Positions 1,422 through 14,872 of a stretch of 30,173 nucleotides of DNA are shown piece by piece. A model generated the notes under the pieces. That model was not told the origin of the DNA and did no database searches. It saw only the letters and a list, made by a program, of their open reading frames with translations. The stretch's first letter is position 1. Each line of letters begins with the position of its first letter. Made by a program: the position numbers and the translations under genes. This stretch comes from a virus. The stretch covers positions 1 through 30,173 of IMG/VR virus record IMGVR_UViG_3300035698_001360; one strand, 5' to 3'.

Positions 1422-1628
1422 ATGAAGAACCACACGGTCACGCGCTGGGGCATCGCCTACAGCAACGAGGAGGGGTTCCCCGGAGATGAGACTCTGTACG
1501 CACACTCGTCCTCGTTCGCCATGCCAGCCCTTTACCAGACCGAGGCCAAGCAGTATTGCACCCACATGAACAGGTTCGGGTGGGACTACCGCGTCGTAAA
1601 GGTCCAACTCGCTTGGGAGGCCAAATGA
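1422..1628 (+). CDS. Small hypothetical protein between ligase and terminase
   Basis: This encodes 68 residues. A GGAG Shine-Dalgarno sits 6-7 bases before ATG 1422, and the stop overlaps the terminase ATG. The sequence is rich in Tyr, Trp and His with no membrane segment. It occupies a position where a small terminase subunit might be expected, but at 68 residues and without an obvious helix-turn-helix it is not convincing as one. Function unknown. Confidence 0.65.
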   Translation: MKNHTVTRWGIAYSNEEGFPGDETLYAHSSSFAMPALYQTEAKQYCTHMNRFGWDYRVVKVQLAWEAK

Positions 1629-3496
1629 CCCAGAAGGCCGTCCTCGTCGACCCCCTGAAGGACCCCATGCTGGACAGGGTGATCCAGGCGGAACTCGACA
1701 CTGCCTACCACGCCATGAAGCAGAAGCTGGTGGTCTTCGGGGACCCCATCAAGGACGACTTCAGGGTCTTCCTAACGGTCCTCTGGCGTCACCTGAAGCT
1801 GCCTGACCCGACACCACTACAGCTAGACATCGCGTGGCACCTCCAGCACAGCCAGGACTCCCGCAACGTCATCATGGCGTTCCGAGGAGCGGCCAAGTCG
1901 TGGATCACGGCGGCCTATGTCCTCTGGCTCCTCCTCAGGAACCCGCAGCACAAGGTCATGGTGGCCTCAGGGTCGGTTCGCCGGTCGGTAGCCTTCGTGA
2001 ACTTCTGCCTCAACCTGATAGGCGAGGTGCCGTGCCTGAAGGTCCTTAGGCCGAAGCCGAACCAGAGGCAGTCCAGTACGGCCTTCGACGTGGGGCCATC
2101 CCTCCCTGACCAGACTCCAAGCCTGTTCGCGGTAGGCATCACGGCCCAGATCGTCGGCTTTCGGGCGGACACGATTGTCGGTGATGACGTGGAGACGAAT
2201 ACCAACTCCATGACACCCCTGATGCGTGAGAAGCTCGCAGACAGCATCAAGGAGTTCGACGCCATCCTGAAGCCGGGTGGAGAGGTCTGGTTCCTGGGCA
2301 CGCCGCAAACCGAGAGTTCTATCTACAACGTCCTCCCGAAGCGTGGCTACGTGATCGCCATCTGGCCTGCAAGGTATCCTAAGGGCAAGCAGAGGAGGGT
2401 CTACGGCGACAAGCTGGCCCGCTTCATCTCCTTCGCCCTGGATAACAACCCGCGACTGGCTGGGCTGCCTACTGAGCCAACAAGGTTCTCCGATGAGGAC
2501 TTAGCGGCCCGTGAGTTGTCCTGGGGCATGGCAGGCTTCGCCCTCCAGTTCATGCTCGATACGACGCTTAGCGATGTCGACAAGTATCCCCTGAAGATCG
2601 GGGACCTGATGGTCATGTCGCTCGATATGCGTAATGGGCCTGACCTCGTTTCCTGGGGCTCTGGTGACCATCTGGTGCTCAAGGACGTGGACCCTATCAG
2701 CTTCGATGGGGACCGCGCCTACGCGCCTGCCAGCGTCTCTGAGACGTACTCCAAGTGGCAAGGCATCCAGGCCTTCATTGATCCATCTGGCAGAGGCAAG
2801 GATGAGACAACTTTGACCATCGGCGCGGTGCTTCACTCGACGGCCTACTGCCTGAAGCAGGGTGGGTGGCAGGATGGGTACTCGGAGACCACGCTCAGGG
2901 AGATAGCCAACCTGCTCGTCCAGTACAACGTCGCGTCGTGCAAGGTGGAGGAGGACTTCGGACAGGGCATGTTCGCCCAGCTTCTGCGACCCTACGTCAA
3001 GGCTGCCTGGGAGGAACTCAACAAGCGCGTCAAGGTGAAGACCAGGACGATGACCGAGATCGTCTCCGAGCGTGCCCAGAAGATGCAGAAGGAGCTACGC
3101 ATCCTGGAGGTCCTGGAGCCCCTATTCCAGAACCACCGGCTGGTCATGTCCAAGGAGGTGCTCCAAGACGACTACAGGGTCACTATGAACCGTGACGGTA
3201 CTGACATGAGGGATCGCTACTCCCTGATGTACCAGATCACCCGCCTCAGCCGCGAGAAGGATTGCCTGACGCACGATGACCGTGTTGAGGGACTCGCCGG
3301 GTGCATGGCGGTCTTCCAGGAACTGCTGGGACTAAGGCCCCAGGATCAAGCCGATGCCGCCGAGGAGAAGCGCATCGAGGAGTTCTGGGAGGAATACTTC
3401 AAGGAGACTGACAGGATAGGTGGCGTCCGGGGTCCGAACCCCCATAGGCTACGACGAGGACTACGTGTCGGTGAGCGCAAAGCTCGTCGACGTTAA
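1625..3496 (+). CDS. terL: Terminase large subunit (T7 gp19-like)
   Basis: This 623-residue packaging motor translocates DNA into the prohead and cuts the concatemer. The ATPase half has an adenine-binding region (PTPLQLDIAWHLQ, 63-75), a Walker A-like loop AFRGAAKSW (K91, S92) and Walker B TIVGDDVE (183-190). The nuclease half has the RNase H-fold motif FIDPSGRGKDET (384-395), an acidic EEDFGQGMF stretch and a DDRVEGLAG element near the C-terminus. T7 gp19 has 586 residues. ATG 1625 overlaps the preceding stop; a start 69 bases upstream is possible but would run inside the previous gene. The C-terminus is strongly basic. Confidence 0.95.
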   Translation: MTQKAVLVDPLKDPMLDRVIQAELDTAYHAMKQKLVVFGDPIKDDFRVFLTVLWRHLKLPDPTPLQLDIAWHLQHSQDSRNVIMAFRGAAKSWITAAYVLWLLLRNPQHKVMVASGSVRRSVAFVNFCLNLIGEVPCLKVLRPKPNQRQSSTAFDVGPSLPDQTPSLFAVGITAQIVGFRADTIVGDDVETNTNSMTPLMREKLADSIKEFDAILKPGGEVWFLGTPQTESSIYNVLPKRGYVIAIWPARYPKGKQRRVYGDKLARFISFALDNNPRLAGLPTEPTRFSDEDLAARELSWGMAGFALQFMLDTTLSDVDKYPLKIGDLMVMSLDMRNGPDLVSWGSGDHLVLKDVDPISFDGDRAYAPASVSETYSKWQGIQAFIDPSGRGKDETTLTIGAVLHSTAYCLKQGGWQDGYSETTLREIANLLVQYNVASCKVEEDFGQGMFAQLLRPYVKAAWEELNKRVKVKTRTMTEIVSERAQKMQKELRILEVLEPLFQNHRLVMSKEVLQDDYRVTMNRDGTDMRDRYSLMYQITRLSREKDCLTHDDRVEGLAGCMAVFQELLGLRPQDQADAAEEKRIEEFWEEYFKETDRIGGVRGPNPHRLRRGLRVGERKARRR

Positions 3497-4405: not shown

Positions 4406-4529
4406 GGCATCGAGTACGGCATCGAGTACGGCATCGAGTACGGCATCGAGGGGGCATCGAGTACGGCATCGAGTGGGCATCGAGTACGGCATCGAGTACG
4501 GCATCGAGTGGGCATCGAGTACGGCATGG
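4406..4529 (+). repeat. 12-bp tandem array, GGCATCGAGTAC
   Basis: About ten units of GGCATCGAGTAC or an 11-base variant GGCATCGAGTG run head to tail, with one GGG-interrupted unit near 4450. Unit starts include 4406, 4418, 4430, 4442, 4453, 4465, 4476, 4488, 4500 and 4511, and a degenerate end follows at 4523. Mixed 11- and 12-base units break any single frame, which argues against coding. It could be a replication, packaging or protein-binding array. Confidence 0.85.
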
Positions 4530-4577: not shown

Positions 4578-4605
4578 GGGCTCGCTCGCTTCGCTCGCTC
4601 GCAGG
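4578..4605 (+). repeat. GCTCGCTCGCTTCGCTCGC-type dispersed repeat, copy 1
   Basis: A GGGCTCGCTCG CTTCGCTCGCTCGCAGG element. Related copies occur at 4691-4735 and 5702-5750, the latter two followed by an AAGGAA...GACAGGAAGG tract. Confidence 0.75.
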
Positions 4606-4630
4606 GTGGGCACAAGGTGAGGAGAGGAGA

Positions 4631-4783
4631 GGAAGGACAGCAAGGAAGCATTGAGGAGCGTGCGAAGCACGCACTTCAAGCCATGCTTGCGGCTCGCTCG
4701 CTTCGCTCACTCGCAAGGAAGGACAGGAAGGAAGCGTTAAGGAGCGTGCTACGCACGCGCATCAAGATGATGCTTAAAGCTCG
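4631..4783 (+). repeat. ~65-bp imperfect direct repeat with identical hairpins
   Basis: Bases 4631-4696 recur at 4717-4783 with an offset of 86-87 bases. Both copies share GGAAGGACAG, AAGGAAGC, AGGAGCGTGC, TCAAG, ATGCTT and GCTCG blocks. Each carries a 6-bp hairpin GCGTGC-N3-GCACGC (4658-4672 and 4744-4758); the stem is identical while the loop differs (GAA and TAC), suggesting the hairpin is selected. Confidence 0.7.
4691..4735 (+). repeat. GCTCGCTCGC dispersed repeat, copy 2
   Basis: Same element as 4578-4605, with one G-to-A change (CTCACTCGC), followed by AAGGAAGGACAGGAAGGAAG. Confidence 0.75.
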
Positions 4784-5269: not shown

Positions 5270-5295
5270 TTTGCGAGAGTGACGCCATGGGGAGA

Positions 5296-5352
5296 GGAGG
5301 TCGCGGACTGAATGGTCCGCCTGATGAGGAGGGCGCTACCCTCGAAACCTTC
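5296..5352 (+). ncRNA. Type III hammerhead self-cleaving ribozyme
   Basis: Every core element of a type III hammerhead is present in order. Stem III is GGAGGU (5296-5301) with ACCUUC (5347-5352), including the required A15.1-U16.1 pair and one G-U. The cleavage triplet GUC is 5300-5302, with predicted scission between 5302 and 5303. Stem I is GCGGAC/GTCCGC (5303-5308 with 5315-5320) with a TGAATG loop. The core CUGAUGA is 5321-5327. Stem II is GAGGG/CCCTC (5329-5333 with 5339-5343), or a G-C closing pair with a bulge, and its loop is CGCTA. GAAA follows at 5344-5347. Cleavage would leave a 3' product starting 70 bases before the ATG at 5373. Confidence 0.88.
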
Positions 5353-5372
5353 ACACCTTGCGAGGCTACACC

Positions 5373-5648
5373 ATGATGGATCGCGACTGGTACAATGGCG
5401 ATGAGGTAAGGCGCGGCGCACATCTCGGCAGGCGCACCACACGATACGCGAACCACGATCACACTGAGACTTGCATCATGGATGGCAGCTACGACAAACA
5501 AGACAATGGGCAGCCATTCGGAAGCCAGACGGATCACCTGCCGCGCAAGGGTTGGAGCAAGTCCAAGAGGATCGCGGCAGGGAAGGCGAACGGCGGCAAG
5601 TCCAAGCCATACGATCACGACGCTTGGCGGCGCGAGATGGACAGCTAG
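5373..5648 (+). CDS. First early gene, unrecognised 91-residue protein
   Basis: ATG 5373 (a second ATG follows immediately) has GAGG about nine bases upstream and lies 21 bases after the hammerhead ribozyme; an in-frame TTG at 5358 is an alternative. The product is polar and charged. A histidine-rich middle (YANHDHTETC) is followed by a basic Gly/Lys-rich segment (SKSKRIAAGKANGGKSK), which could contact nucleic acid. It is the first gene after the presumed early promoters, the place where T7 encodes its anti-restriction protein Ocr, but it is basic and not Ocr-like. Function unknown. Confidence 0.55.
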   Translation: MMDRDWYNGDEVRRGAHLGRRTTRYANHDHTETCIMDGSYDKQDNGQPFGSQTDHLPRKGWSKSKRIAAGKANGGKSKPYDHDAWRREMDS

Positions 5649-5756
5649 TCGCCGGAGCGCACCGGATGCGACATTTATGCAACATGCCCTCGATGGGCTG
5701 CGGGCTCGCTCGCTTCGCTCGCTCGCAAGGAAGAAAGACAGGAAGGCAGCAAGAAG
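5649..5756 (+). repeat. GCTCGCTCGC dispersed repeat, copy 3, in intergenic gap
   Basis: The repeat proper is 5702-5750: GGGCTCGCTCGC, TTCGCTCGCTCGC, then an AAGGAAGAAAGACAGGAAGG tract. It matches the copies at 4578 and 4691 and separates the first two early genes. Confidence 0.7.
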
Positions 5757-5954: not shown

Positions 5955-5965
5955 GCACCGGACGA

Positions 5966-5983
5966 CCTTACGTCACAACACAC
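5966..5983 (+). promoter_or_regulatory. Candidate phage promoter motif (copy D)
   Basis: CCTTACGTCACAACACAC matches the motif seen in other gaps (6782, 12001, 14873, 22567, 29002). It lies 16 bases before the ATG at 5999. Confidence 0.45.
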
Positions 5984-5998
5984 GAAGGAGACGCCCTC

Positions 5999-6585: not shown

Positions 6586-6780
6586 ATGGACCAGAACGAG
6601 ATCACACTGTTCCTCACCATGACACGGGCAGCTCAAGCGGCCTACGGGGTCGATGGGATGGTTGAGGGCCGCATCACATACCGGATCACTGCCGGATACT
6701 TGAAGTGCGACGACGGGACGGTCGATAGGGGCTTCAAGGTACAGATAATCGAGGACGACGACAGGCGCTACTTCCTGTAG
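6586..6780 (+). CDS. Small early protein, unrecognised
   Basis: This encodes 64 residues. ATG 6586 follows GGAGTAGGCACC, with a usable GGAG. An N-terminal helix (NEITLFLTMTRAAQAAYG) is followed by a beta-rich part with alternating hydrophobic and charged residues (RITYRITAGYL, FKVQIIEDDDRRYFL), which looks like a small compact fold. The stop is directly followed by the promoter-like motif at 6782. Function unknown. Confidence 0.55.
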   Translation: MDQNEITLFLTMTRAAQAAYGVDGMVEGRITYRITAGYLKCDDGTVDRGFKVQIIEDDDRRYFL

Positions 6781-6781
6781 A

Positions 6782-6799
6782 CCTTACGTCACAACACAA
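6782..6799 (+). promoter_or_regulatory. Candidate phage promoter motif (copy E)
   Basis: CCTTACGTCACAACACAA is identical to the copy at 5966 over 17 bases. The following gene is a partial paralogue of the one after that copy, so motif and gene start were duplicated together. Confidence 0.45.
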
Positions 6800-6811
6800 G
6801 GACCATACACC

Positions 6812-10388: not shown

Positions 10389-11633
10389 GTGCCGATAGTT
10401 GAGAGAGGTAGCACCTTCCAGGTCACCGTCCATCGAGCCGACGCGAAGCCTGGATACCGCAGGATACGCCGCCAACGTCACACCAGGGCAGACGCTGAGG
10501 CCTTGGAGCAGGAGATCGAGCGGAACATCACGACGCACGGCAAGTGGCCAATCGGGAGGTACGACAAGCCCCTCCCGGTGAGGCCCTTGATGGCACACAA
10601 GCAGGGCACCCTCAGGGTCGCCGCCGGCCACGCCAAGCGGTCGCACCAGGAGTGGGTAGGCACCGAGTATGGTGCGAAGGCCTCCCTGATGATCGCCGCC
10701 GTGGTCGACTTCATGGAGGCTCGTGGCCGCAAGAACCTGCACGACATCAACTCTGACGACCTCCTCGCCTACACCGAGTATCGACGGTCTCAGGGCAACA
10801 CCAACAGCACCATCAACAAGCACCTCTCGACCATCTCCGTGATCTTCGACGAGGCCGTGAACCGCACTCCTCCTCTCTGTGACGCCAAGCCAGCCATCAA
10901 GCGGTGCCCGGACGAATACCTGGAGAAGTGGTGGCTACGGCCAGAGGATCAGGTAGTGGTCCTAAAGCTCCTTCGGGACAACGACGACTTCCTGTTCGCG
11001 GACTTCCTAGAGCTTACCATCAGCCAGGGATGCCGGATAACCGAAACCCTCGGCCTCAGGCCTGGGGACTTCACCGGGATGGATACGGACAGGCCCCTCA
11101 TGAAGATCAGCGGTCGTGAGGACAAGCAGACACACGACAGGACCACAAAGACAAAGGGGTCCCAGGCCACCATCCCTGTGTTCGCTCCATCCATCCCCAT
11201 CGCCCTGAGGTGCATCGAGAGGGCAAGGAGCCACCACTGGACCCAACTGTTCCCCTTCGACTGGCAGCAGGCCGCAAGGCAGTGGAACAAGGTTCGGGCC
11301 ACGTTGGGTGCAAGCGGCGTACGAACAGCCACACTGAGGTCCCTGAGGCGCACCTTCGCATACCACGCCAACGCTAGTGGGATGCCGACAGCAACACTTC
11401 AGCGCGTACTACGTCACTCCACACTAGCCACCACGGGTAAGTATCTGGAACTCGTAGGAGGCACCAGTGCTGAGGATGCCAGGCCCTACTTCCAGACCGC
11501 GCCCGACACCAAGGAGCCAGCAGTCACCATCCAGGATGGCTTCGGGCAGGCCATTAGTGCATACAAGGCCACCGGAGCAACCCCAGAGGAGGTGGCGCGG
11601 TTCGCCAAGGCCATGATGGAGGGCACCAAGTGA
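10389..11633 (+). CDS. int: Tyrosine-family site-specific integrase
   Basis: This 414-residue tyrosine recombinase should recombine phage attP with a host attB. GTG 10389 follows a strong GAGGGAGG. Residues ~85-160 form the SAM-like core-binding domain. Catalytic residues visible are R216 (GCRITETLGLRPGDF), the beta-hairpin Lys near 254-256 (KTKGSQATIPV), R320 (SLRRTFAYHA), H343 (LRHSTLATTGKY) and nucleophile Y352. The first residue of the usual HxxR motif is Arg (R317) instead of His. A complete tRNA-Leu gene 280 bases downstream is the probable attP. GTGA overlap links it to the next gene. Integrase upstream of the polymerase gene is the order known in integrase-bearing T7-like cyanophages. 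Confidence 0.95.
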   Translation: MPIVERGSTFQVTVHRADAKPGYRRIRRQRHTRADAEALEQEIERNITTHGKWPIGRYDKPLPVRPLMAHKQGTLRVAAGHAKRSHQEWVGTEYGAKASLMIAAVVDFMEARGRKNLHDINSDDLLAYTEYRRSQGNTNSTINKHLSTISVIFDEAVNRTPPLCDAKPAIKRCPDEYLEKWWLRPEDQVVVLKLLRDNDDFLFADFLELTISQGCRITETLGLRPGDFTGMDTDRPLMKISGREDKQTHDRTTKTKGSQATIPVFAPSIPIALRCIERARSHHWTQLFPFDWQQAARQWNKVRATLGASGVRTATLRSLRRTFAYHANASGMPTATLQRVLRHSTLATTGKYLELVGGTSAEDARPYFQTAPDTKEPAVTIQDGFGQAISAYKATGATPEEVARFAKAMMEGTK

Positions 11634-11815: not shown

Positions 11816-12018
11816 GCCCAGGTAAAGTAGTCGACCAGTACCTCCAAGCCATCTTCGAGGCCATCTGGACCGTCCAGTTCAACCGAGCAGAGAAGAAGCG
11901 GTTGGCTGCATTGGTGCCCTCTCCCGGACTCGAACCGGGACCCCGTGAAGGACCGCATTTTGAGTGCGGCGCGTCTACCTATTCCGCCAAGAGGGCACGC
12001 CACGTCGTTACACAATGA
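11812..12018 (+). CDS. ORF whose 3' half runs antisense through the tRNA
   Basis: ATG 11812 overlaps the upstream stop and has a GGAGG about seven bases before it, so translation probably starts here. The first ~34 residues (to KKRLAAL) look like a normal helical peptide. From about residue 35 the frame reads antisense through the tRNA-Leu gene, giving PSPGLEPG..., a string typical of translated tRNA complements. If attP lies in the tRNA, integration would replace the 3' end of this gene with host sequence. Confidence 0.4.
   Translation: MSPGKVVDQYLQAIFEAIWTVQFNRAEKKRLAALVPSPGLEPGPREGPHFECGASTYSAKRARHVVTQ
11912..11996 (-). tRNA. tRNA-Leu (anticodon CAA), probable attP core
   Basis: The minus strand folds into a complete class II tRNA of 85 bases including an encoded CCA. 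The acceptor stem is GCCCUCU/AGAGGGC (7 bp), the D-arm carries GGUAGACGC, the anticodon stem CCGCA/UGCGG encloses loop CUCAAAA, there is a ~13-base variable arm, and the T-arm is CCCGG-UUCGAGU-CCGGG. It lies 280 bases after int. In related integrating T7-like phages, attP is a piece of a host tRNA-Leu gene, so this copy may both restore the disrupted host gene and serve as a functional phage tRNA for UUG codons. Confidence 0.93.
12001..12018 (+). promoter_or_regulatory. Candidate phage promoter motif (copy F)
   Basis: CACGTCGTTACACAATGA resembles copy C at 14873 (ACGTCGTT then ACAC). It lies right after the tRNA and before the polymerase block; the 116 bases from here to 12134 carry no gene. 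Confidence 0.3.
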
Positions 12019-12134: not shown

Positions 12135-12374
12135 ATGAAGAAGGGCGAAGCTCCGTTGTTTCCAGCAGTGGTGGCGTTTCTGTCCTCGACGCGGCAGCGC
12201 GCGCCACAACGCAAACAGCCAGCCAACTACAAAACACTGGACGAGAACTTCCAGACCATGACCATCACCAAGACCGTCAGGAAGTGCGATGCGGACGGTA
12301 AGTGGTGGCGCATCCAGACACGAGTGTGCCCTCACACAGGGGTCACCATCAGAGAGATAAAGAGGATTGCCTAA
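12135..12374 (+). CDS. Small basic protein just before RNA polymerase
   Basis: This encodes 79 residues. AAGGAGG (12119-12125) positions ATG 12135; an internal ATG at 12258 would give a 38-residue core (MTITKTVRKCDADGKWWRI...). The C-terminal part holds two Cys (RKCDAD and TRVCPHTG) with a GKWWRIQT strand between them and could be a small beta fold. The N-terminal part is basic and poorly structured. The stop overlaps the polymerase ATG by one base. Function unknown. Confidence 0.6.
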   Translation: MKKGEAPLFPAVVAFLSSTRQRAPQRKQPANYKTLDENFQTMTITKTVRKCDADGKWWRIQTRVCPHTGVTIREIKRIA

Positions 12375-14872
12375 TGCACACCCTGGATGCCCCCTACCTG
12401 CACCCCAAGTGGGACGAACAAGTTGCCATCGAACAGGAGATGCTAGCCATCGGTGCCTCCCGCACCAGGGACCGCATCAACAAGGCCAAGGACAAGAAGT
12501 CCATGACGAACCTCCGGTCCCACCGCTCGCTCATCCATGAGTGGGTCGTCCCGGTATCTGAAGGGATAACTGCCTGGGTCGACAAGGTAGGCAACAAGCA
12601 GCGTGGCCCCAAGCCATACGCCTTGCGCTGCCTCCGTCTTGTAGACCACGACACGGCATCCATGGTTGCCCTCAAATCCATCCTAAGGATGCTTGGTGTC
12701 GAGACCCGAGGCGTGACCTCCATCGCCACTGAGATCGGAACATGGTGTGAGCATGAGGCCAGAGCAGCAGCCTGGATGAGGGATGAGCCCGACGACTGGA
12801 AGCTCACCTCGGCGCAGTACCGGAAGCGACACAGCACAGCAGCCCACCAGAAGCGATCCCGCATCGCCCTGTTCAACAAGTATGTTCATGAGAAGATCGA
12901 CTGGACACCCTGGACGGACGAGGAGCGGCTGCGGGTGGGACTTCAACTCATCTCCATCGTCTCGGAGGTAACAGGGCGCTTCTCCATCATGCCGGACCCC
13001 CAGTACGTGCCCAAGAGGTCACGAGGTGGTCAGGTCATGTCCCGACCCATCATCGTAAAGCCCGACGACGGCCTCATACAGTGGCTGGAGGATGCGATGG
13101 ACGACGAGTTAGTTCACGCAGCCGCCTTCCTGCCCTGCGTCATGCCGCCGAAGCCGTGGGAGGGTCCCAGAGACGGTGGCTACTGGACACCTTACGTCAA
13201 GACACCCTTTCTCATACAGTTTCGGGCCAGCCACCAGGAGGAGAAGCAGCGGGCCATCGACGAGTACGAACGCATCGCCATGCCGACCGTCTACGACGCG
13301 CTAAACCATGTGCAGGCAACCGCATGGAAGATCAATCGGCGCATCTATGAGGTGGCCTCACGTGCCTGGAAGCAGGACCTAGCCGTGGCCGGTATGCCGA
13401 GGCTAGAGGCTGAGACAATACCCTCAATGCCGGACGCCCCGCACGACACAGAGGAGTACAAGGCGTGGACCAGGAAGGCCAGCGAGGCCCACGCTAGGAA
13501 CAACACGCGGTTCAGCAAGTTCATATCCGTCAGACGGGCACTACAGGTGGCTGAGAGGTTCCTGGACGAACCTGCAATCTACTTCCCGCACAAGCTGGAC
13601 TTCCGAGGGAGGATGTATCCAATCCCCTCCGACCTATCACCTCAGGGCTTCGACCTACATCGTGGACTTCTCACCTTCGCCACTGGTAAGCCGATAACCT
13701 TCGAGAGTTCCGGGTGGCTCGCCATCCAGGTAGCCAATACCCACGGCAAGGACAAGGTTTCCTTCCAGGACCGGATCGACTGGGTGGAAGCAAACGAGGA
13801 ACGCTGGAGGTCTATCGCTGAGGACCCACTGGTCGACCGAAGGTGGGAGGATGCCGACGAGAAGAACCGCTGGCAGGCTCTTGCAGCTATCCTTGAGTGG
13901 GTCCGTTGGTTGGACGAGGGGGAGGGAATGGTGTCCTCCCTTCCTATCCGCATAGACGGGACCTGCAACGGCATCCAGCACCTATCGGCCATGGTGCGAG
14001 ACCGTGAGGGGGGCGAGAGCGTCAACCTAGTCAACTCCGAGAAGCCGCGAGACATCTACCAGGAGGTCGCTGATGTCCTACGGGTCACCCTCAAAGAAAA
14101 GGCGGGCGAGGAGCACGCTGACTACTGGCTTCGTCTGATGCCGGACGGGATACCGAGGAGCCTCACCAAGAGACCCGTCATGATCCTGCCCTACGGAGGC
14201 ACCAGGGACGCCTACTACACCTACACGATGGAGTGGCTGCGCAAGCAGGACCCCCATGGCATCACGATACCAAAGGACATCCGCTCCAAGGCTTGCTCCT
14301 TCATGGTCCCCATCCTCTGGGAGGCAGTCAACGCGGTCGTCACCAAGCCCAAGGAGGTCATGGAGTGGATACAGAAGTGCGCCGCCGCAGCCACCACTGA
14401 TGGGCTTCCGCTACACTGGACGACGCCCTCAGGCTTCACCGTGAGGCACTTCTATGGGACGAGGAAAAAGCGCCAGATACGCACCCTCATCGACGGTCAG
14501 AGGCTCGATGTCGTCTACTGGGAGGAGACCCCTAAACTCGACCTCAGGCGGCAGGCTAAGGGCATAGCCCCGAACTTCGTTCACTCCATGGACGCCTCTG
14601 CCCTCATGGACTGCGTGGAGACCGCCGCGCACAACGGGGTGGAGAGTATCACTACCATCCATGACGCCTTCGGGACCGTAGCTGCCGACATGCACACCCT
14701 CGAAGCCTGCTTACGGGATGCCTTCATACGGACCTACGAGACGGATGTCCTCCTGGACTTCCTTACGTCCTGCAAGGATGTCGCAACGCCTGAAGCCATC
14801 TGGCCAGAGCCCATCGCTTTCGGTGACCTGGACCTCGGTGAAATCCGCAGTTCTGCTTACTTCTTCGCATAA
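12374..14872 (+). CDS. T7-type single-subunit DNA-directed RNA polymerase
   Basis: This 832-residue enzyme transcribes phage middle and late genes (T7 gp1 has 883). Motifs in order: KLDFRGRMYP (407-415), motif A RIDGTCNGIQHLSAM with metal ligand D528, motif B TKRPVMILPYGG with K599 and the nucleotide-selecting Y607, APNFVHSMDASAL (732-744) and motif C TTIHDAFGT with D764. The region between residues ~685 and 730, equivalent to the T7 specificity loop, is Arg/Lys-rich (RHFYGTRKKRQIRT) and differs strongly from T7, fitting a different promoter. ATG 12374 overlaps the preceding stop. The candidate cognate promoters are the TACGTC motifs listed in the gaps. Confidence 0.97.
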   Translation: MHTLDAPYLHPKWDEQVAIEQEMLAIGASRTRDRINKAKDKKSMTNLRSHRSLIHEWVVPVSEGITAWVDKVGNKQRGPKPYALRCLRLVDHDTASMVALKSILRMLGVETRGVTSIATEIGTWCEHEARAAAWMRDEPDDWKLTSAQYRKRHSTAAHQKRSRIALFNKYVHEKIDWTPWTDEERLRVGLQLISIVSEVTGRFSIMPDPQYVPKRSRGGQVMSRPIIVKPDDGLIQWLEDAMDDELVHAAAFLPCVMPPKPWEGPRDGGYWTPYVKTPFLIQFRASHQEEKQRAIDEYERIAMPTVYDALNHVQATAWKINRRIYEVASRAWKQDLAVAGMPRLEAETIPSMPDAPHDTEEYKAWTRKASEAHARNNTRFSKFISVRRALQVAERFLDEPAIYFPHKLDFRGRMYPIPSDLSPQGFDLHRGLLTFATGKPITFESSGWLAIQVANTHGKDKVSFQDRIDWVEANEERWRSIAEDPLVDRRWEDADEKNRWQALAAILEWVRWLDEGEGMVSSLPIRIDGTCNGIQHLSAMVRDREGGESVNLVNSEKPRDIYQEVADVLRVTLKEKAGEEHADYWLRLMPDGIPRSLTKRPVMILPYGGTRDAYYTYTMEWLRKQDPHGITIPKDIRSKACSFMVPILWEAVNAVVTKPKEVMEWIQKCAAAATTDGLPLHWTTPSGFTVRHFYGTRKKRQIRTLIDGQRLDVVYWEETPKLDLRRQAKGIAPNFVHSMDASALMDCVETAAHNGVESITTIHDAFGTVAADMHTLEACLRDAFIRTYETDVLLDFLTSCKDVATPEAIWPEPIAFGDLDLGEIRSSAYFFA

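What the first reader, a model, noticed from the sequence alone, without database searches (positions are those of the whole stretch)
5296..5352. Hammerhead ribozyme in the leader of the first early phage gene
All conserved core nucleotides of a type III hammerhead are present: CUGAUGA (5321-5327), GAAA (5344-5347) and cleavage triplet GUC (5300-5302), with a 6-bp stem I closed exactly on both core sides, a 5-bp stem II and a 6-bp stem III containing A15.1-U16.1. Chance occurrence of core plus three correct stems in order is very unlikely. It lies downstream of candidate host promoters and several hairpins, and 21 bases before the ATG of the first early gene. Cleavage would give early mRNAs a defined 5'-OH end and detach the upstream repeat-rich leader, which might affect stability or translation.
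Basis: partly seen in the sequence, partly recalled or inferred. Interest (0 to 1): 0.95.

Follow-up and report, generated by a model that had tools for sequence, protein, structure and literature searches.

The report
Self-cutting RNA in phage early leader
The leader of the first early gene of a T7-like phage encodes a hammerhead ribozyme, an RNA that cuts itself, and related phages keep one at the same spot and often more between their early genes, which suggests that these phages trim their early messages with RNA instead of an enzyme.

Summary
Window 5296-5352 (+) folds as a type III hammerhead with a complete core and GUC cleavage triplet. A model built from 50 other phage hammerheads scores it 42.7 bits (E 8e-12); the next window match scores 10.2. 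Rfam RF00008 gives only 26.3 bits, below its cutoff of 48.5. Shuffles never reproduce it.

The window is a temperate T7-like phage. Its two closest syntenic relatives, prophages of Nitratireductor and another Rhizobiaceae, have a type III hammerhead at the same place, with different but still paired stems.

Hammerheads flanking prophage genes are known (Perreault 2011), so this is a new member of a known kind. What I did not find described is an order rule: in arrays mixing type III with other types, type III comes first in 17 of 18 independent lineages (p about 5e-6). Type I and II sit behind a gene; the leading type III does not. Type III leaves its hairpins on the downstream mRNA, type I on the upstream mRNA, so the rule suggests RNA-only processing of early mRNA, comparable to T7's RNase III sites. 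Cleavage itself was not tested.

The parts
5296..5301 (+). Stem III, 5' strand (GGAGGU), ends with U16.1
   Evidence: sequence; R1 alignment
5302..5302 (+). C17; predicted cleavage between 5302 and 5303
   Evidence: position in the hammerhead consensus; cleavage not tested
5303..5320 (+). Stem I GCGGAC/GUCCGC with loop UGAAUG (5309-5314)
5321..5327 (+). Catalytic core CUGAUGA (C3-A9)
5328..5328 (+). Extra G between A9 and stem II (alternative: G10.1 of a mismatched stem II)
   Evidence: the same kind of insertion in L138, L258, L353, L443, L452, L496, L510
5329..5343 (+). Stem II GAGGG/CCCUC with loop CGCUA (5334-5338)
5344..5352 (+). GAAA (G12-A15.1) and stem III 3' strand
5362..5365 (+). Shine-Dalgarno-like GAGG, 7 nt before the ATG
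   Evidence: read from sequence
5373..5648 (+). First early ORF, 91 aa, no family match
1625..3496 (+). Terminase large subunit, the syntenic marker upstream
   Evidence: phrog_38 E 7e-89
10389..11633 (+). Tyrosine integrase
   Evidence: phrog_1 E 2e-30
12302..14872 (+). Single-subunit (T7-type) RNA polymerase
   Evidence: phrog_414 E 3e-230

Best explanation
This is a type III hammerhead ribozyme encoded in the leader of the first early transcript of a temperate T7-like phage. The nascent transcript, probably made by host RNA polymerase, cuts itself between C5302 and G5303. The upstream repeat-rich leader is released with a 2',3'-cyclic phosphate, and the early mRNA starts with a 5'-OH at the foot of the stem I hairpin, with stems I and II kept as a structured 5' cap before the ribosome site. 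It would do by RNA alone what RNase III does at the leader site of the T7 early transcript. Type III is the topology that leaves the ribozyme on the downstream mRNA, which fits a site with no gene upstream. Shown here: sequence, fold, position, conservation and covariation. Inferred: transcription through the site, cleavage, and the benefit to the mRNA.
For: Complete core and stems; no comparable hit in 14,234 shuffles; R1, built without the window, scores 42.7 bits against 10.2 for the next match. In syntenic prophages, L442 has a type III hammerhead ending about 15-18 nt before the first ATG, and L443 has one about 1.77 kb past terL; both were absent from R1 and score 48.9 and 31.8 bits. On 23 aligned matches (22 leader sites plus a second match in L094), 93.9% of stem cells pair and 14 of 17 pairs change on both sides; partners slid by one column give 40-46% (the alignment was fitted to the structure, which favours it). 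In the two terL-selected sets, chosen without regard to ribozymes, all 33 hammerhead hits lie on the coding strand. In mixed arrays type III leads in 17 of 18 lineages. Leading type III sites in mixed arrays rarely have a gene just upstream: 12%, against 77% (type I), 72% (type II) and a 7% antisense background. Prophage hammerheads have been shown to cleave in vitro and in E. coli (PMC3088659), and in haloviruses HF1/HF2 the mapped 5' end lies within 3 nt of the cleavage site of a variant hammerhead 13 nt upstream of an early gene.
Against: Cleavage was not tested. The extra base after A9 departs from the consensus. No loop I-loop II base pairing is visible here, against 3-4 bp in many relatives, so cleavage may be slow. 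The Rfam score is below its cutoff. No promoter was identified. Among relatives, L131 (terL 62%) and L444 (50%) show no type III hammerhead downstream, and in the viral terL set only 4 of 80 loci (many of them truncated) had any hammerhead downstream of terL, so the element is dispensable.
Confidence: 0.68

Rival explanations
1. A real but decayed or very slow hammerhead: descended from an active leader ribozyme, now impaired by the extra G and lacking loop-loop contacts, kept only as hairpins.
For: Extra G5328; no Watson-Crick helix possible between loops I and II while many relatives offer 3-4 bp; among the lower CM scores of the leader set; four of 18 consensus hammerheads tested in PMC3088659 were inactive.
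Against: All core bases and all three stems are intact although the sequence differs widely from relatives, which drift would not preserve. Extra bases at this place recur in seven other type III loci and a natural viroid hammerhead carries an extra core base (CChMVd, cited in PMC3705267 and PMC6155905).
Confidence: 0.18
2. A regulated ribozyme: cleavage is conditional and switches the first early gene on or off, or the released 5' leader is itself a functional small RNA.
For: Position 20 nt before the ATG; the repeat-rich leader upstream; PMC3088659 speculates about regulated cleavage in phages.
Against: The first genes of relatives show no similarity to the window's first gene while the ribozyme stays, which argues for a generic role; no ligand-like domain is attached to the loops.
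Confidence: 0.1
3. Hairpins with another role (RNase III site, terminator, protein binding) that resemble a hammerhead.
For: Stems I and II are strong hairpins by themselves.
Against: Would not explain CUGANGA, GAAA and the U16.1-A15.1 pair at the same site in syntenic relatives found through their terminase.
Confidence: 0.03
4. Chance match.
For: First-stage reading covers many windows, and the motif is short.
Against: Shuffle result, E 8e-12 with an independent model, same site in syntenic relatives.
Confidence: 0.01

Closest known systems
Hammerhead ribozyme, type III (Rfam RF00008)
   Same: Core, triplet, three stems and stem III open
   Different: One extra base after A9; 26.3 bits against a gathering score of 48.5; weak loop contacts
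Clustered hammerheads in prophages (Perreault et al. 2011, PMC3088659), e.g. Agrobacterium tumefaciens ardA/marR/integrase cluster
   Same: Coding strand, upstream of early accessory genes near an integrase; proposed to process long phage transcripts
   Different: The window has a single copy before the first gene; the text of that paper does not state the type-by-position rule or the T7-like early-region setting (its figures and supplements were not readable here)
HHphage variant of haloviruses HF1/HF2 (PMC3088659)
   Same: 13 nt upstream of the start codon of an early-region gene; mapped 5' end near the cleavage site
   Different: Archaeal viruses and a variant core
CChMVd plus-strand hammerhead (De la Pena and Flores 2001, cited in PMC6155905 and PMC3705267)
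   Same: An extra base in the core, placed after A9 (exact place from my own knowledge of the original paper)
   Different: Viroid; the extra base is A rather than G
RNase III sites of the T7 early transcript (from own knowledge)
   Same: A cut in the leader before the first gene and cuts between early genes, leaving hairpins on mRNA ends
   Different: Protein enzyme and hairpin substrate instead of a ribozyme

Membership tests
Hammerhead ribozyme type III | CUGANGA core and GAAA | tested here: met
   5321-5327 and 5344-5347
Hammerhead ribozyme type III | NUH cleavage triplet next to stem III with A15.1-U16.1 | tested here: met
   GUC 5300-5302, A5347-U5301
Hammerhead ribozyme type III | Three stems in order, stem III open | tested here: met
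   stem II requires G5328 to be an insertion
Hammerhead ribozyme type III | No insertion in the core | tested here: inconclusive
   One extra G after A9 or one A-C mismatch in stem II; an extra core base exists in a natural viroid hammerhead
Hammerhead ribozyme type III | Stem I-stem II loop contact | tested here: inconclusive
   No Watson-Crick helix between the loops in the window; non-canonical contacts cannot be judged
Hammerhead ribozyme type III | Self-cleavage in Mg2+ | not testable with these tools
   Needs transcription in vitro
Rfam RF00008 as curated | Score at or above the gathering cutoff of 48.5 bits | tested here: not met
   26.3 bits; the syntenic hammerheads of L442 and L443 do not reach it either
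Prophage hammerhead clusters (Perreault 2011) | Coding-strand hammerheads flanking phage genes near an integrase | tested here: met
   single copy in the window, arrays in relatives
T7-like phage (Autographiviridae-like) | Own single-subunit RNAP, T7-like terminase, primase-helicase, portal and capsid | tested here: met

The most novel reading that the evidence does not exclude
T7-like phages, mainly of alphaproteobacteria, and some other phages process early mRNA with hammerheads chosen by topology. A type III ribozyme in the leader stays on the 5' end of the first mRNA. Type I or II ribozymes between genes leave a hairpin on the 3' end of the upstream mRNA (type II also caps the next 5' end). 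The array would be an RNA-encoded replacement of the T7 RNase III sites, and ribozyme type would be predictable from position.
Probability: 0.45. Interest if true: 0.75.

Novelty: new member of a known kind. Interest (0 to 1): 0.55.

Why it matters
What prokaryotic and phage hammerheads do is stated to be an open question (PMC6155905). The type-by-position rule ties a chemical property (which product keeps the ribozyme) to operon architecture, and makes testable predictions with short transcripts and 5'/3' end mapping. The sites are in sequenced phages (Caulobacter phage S2B, Rhizobium phages RHEph01 and RHEph21) whose records carry no ribozyme annotation. It also shows that Rfam's type III cutoff misses real phage hammerheads.

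Tried and rejected
Exact DNA pattern of the window's stem I plus core in IMG/VR: none. RNAP and early-gene protein queries in IMG/VR found only an identical fragment or nothing. blastn of the early region against phage records: none. No further hammerhead was found in the window's other early intergenic gaps with Rfam or R1. Sigma-70-like promoters upstream: no more than chance. A Watson-Crick loop I-loop II pseudoknot in the window: rejected (that script's loop II includes the stem II letters for the window, and by eye UGAAUG against CGCUA also gives no helix). One call failed because my structure string had the wrong length; a model-fitted alignment was used instead.

Full report
The element. 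The described motif is at the stated place. GUC 5300-5302, stem I 5303-5308/5315-5320, CUGAUGA 5321-5327, GAAA 5344-5347 and stem III 5296-5301/5347-5352 are all there. One point was overlooked: the 5-bp stem II (5329-5333/5339-5343) forms only if G5328 is an additional base between A9 and stem II. ViennaRNA finds this fold as both MFE and centroid for 5294-5352. In 859 Mb of shuffled sequence no hit had all stems of 5 bp or more, and 4 had all of 4 bp or more.

Detection. The whole-window Rfam scan missed it, and a focused scan gives RF00008 26.3 bits against a cutoff of 48.5. A model built from 50 other phage type III hammerheads (R1) scores it 42.7 bits, E 7.7e-12, with the next window match at 10.2 bits. 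Those 50 were selected by a stem-requiring descriptor, so covariation counted on them is partly by construction; the window was not among them.

Setting. The window carries a T7-like terminase (1625-3496), a tyrosine integrase (10389-11633), a tRNA gene on the - strand (11915-11996), a T7-type RNA polymerase (12302-14872), primase-helicase, DNA polymerase, portal and gp10A-like capsid genes. The hammerhead lies between terminase and the first early ORF (5373-5648), 20 nt before its ATG with a GAGG in between. T7-like genomes have their physical ends in this interval, so this is the leader of the first early transcript (established knowledge of T7-like phages; no promoter was detected here).

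Relatives. A terminase alignment was used to collect loci without regard to ribozymes. The two closest, prophages of Nitratireductor sp. B36 (L442, terL 73%) and a Rhizobiaceae MAG (L443, 66%), share the integrase followed by a tRNA on the - strand; L442 also shares several early genes with the window. Both have a type III hammerhead between terminase and the first gene, L443 again with an extra base after A9. Their stem I sequences differ (window GCGGAC/GUCCGC, L442 UAGGGCU/AGCCCUA, L443 GCCACU/AGUGGC) and all pair. Neither was in R1 and both score well with it (48.9 and 31.8 bits). Across 23 model matches (22 leader sites plus a second match in L094), 14 of 17 pairs vary on both sides and 93.9% of cells pair; slid controls pair 34-46% (the alignment is model-fitted, which favours it). 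L131 and L444 lack a detectable type III hammerhead, so it can be lost.

Arrays and the order rule. Many phages carry several hammerheads on the coding strand. Published but not annotated as ribozymes: Caulobacter phage S2B (643-700 type III; 2550-2616 and 3136-3196 type I, L006) and Rhizobium phage RHEph01 (662-712 type III; a weaker type I candidate at 2572, L004). Where type III occurs together with other types, it is first in 17 of 18 lineages after nucleotide clustering (permutation p 5e-6). Departures are L100 (II-III, not type III first) and L364 (III-III-I-II-III, type III first but also last). The terL-selected prophages alone give six of six (L464, L496, L502, L506, L510, L511). A gene with a Shine-Dalgarno start ends just upstream of 77% of type I and 72% of type II sites, but of only 12% of leading type III sites in mixed arrays; the antisense background is 7%. 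After removing related contexts the contrast of leading or single type III (21/53) with type I/II (173/236) stays significant (p 7e-6).

Mechanism. From established hammerhead chemistry, type III leaves nearly the whole ribozyme on the 3' product, type I leaves it on the 5' product, and type II splits it so that each product end carries one hairpin. The observed placement matches what would protect the coding RNA at each site: only the downstream RNA matters in a leader, while the upstream mRNA 3' end matters between genes. T7 itself cuts its early transcript with RNase III in the leader and between genes (own knowledge). The proposal is that these phages do the same without the host enzyme. 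A purely historical reading (an ancestral leader type III, later types multiplied within lineages) is not excluded, although the pattern spans distant lineages from AT-rich (L081, L502) to GC-rich phages.

What is known. Clusters of hammerheads around prophage genes near integrases, cleaving in vitro and in E. coli, and the idea that they process long phage transcripts, are from Perreault et al. 2011 (PMC3088659); that paper's text, as far as read, does not state a position rule. A core with one extra base exists in CChMVd. Searches of the paper library for hammerheads with Autographiviridae, and with terminase plus prophage, returned nothing, and a broader one with RNase III and T7-like listed no paper on phage hammerheads; the library is open-access only.

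Verdict. Real hammerhead, about 0.95. Active in vivo, about 0.75. Leader removal and 5' capping of early mRNA as its main role, about 0.55.

Noticed in passing
L353, L443, L452, L496, L510, L138, L258, L006: An extra base after A9, usually T, recurs in phage hammerheads (27 of about 490 distinct hits, 24 of them T). It may be a tolerated core variant that Rfam scores poorly.
   Followed up: partly
window 4406-4527: Near-tandem 11-12-nt repeats (GGCATCGAGTAC) in the non-coding stretch between terminase and the hammerhead; function unknown.
   Followed up: no
window 4579-4609, 4691-4721, 5703-5733: Three copies of the palindrome-rich GGCTCGCTCGCTTCGCTCGCTCGCAAGGAAG on both sides of the hammerhead and first gene.
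   Followed up: no
window 5964-5995 and 6780-6811: A repeated leader motif GACCTTACGTCACAACACA precedes two duplicated early genes (77% identical 90-nt starts at 5998 and 6811). L131 has a different repeated leader, ATTCCACA, before several early genes.
   Followed up: no
window 11915-11996 (-), L442 19682-19763 (-), L443 21583-21664 (-): tRNA gene on the - strand next to the integrase, conserved in relatives (annotated tRNA-Leu in related phages); likely the attachment site.
   Followed up: no
L007 9397-10050 and L009 13906-14523: Related phages are annotated with a putative RtcB (Mesorhizobium phage Lo5R7ANS) and an RNA ligase 2 (RHEph21), enzymes that handle RNA ends such as those left by ribozymes or RNases.
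   Followed up: no
L350, L353, L357, L430: Arrays made only of type III hammerheads (3-4 copies), exceptions to the type I/II-between-genes pattern.
   Followed up: partly
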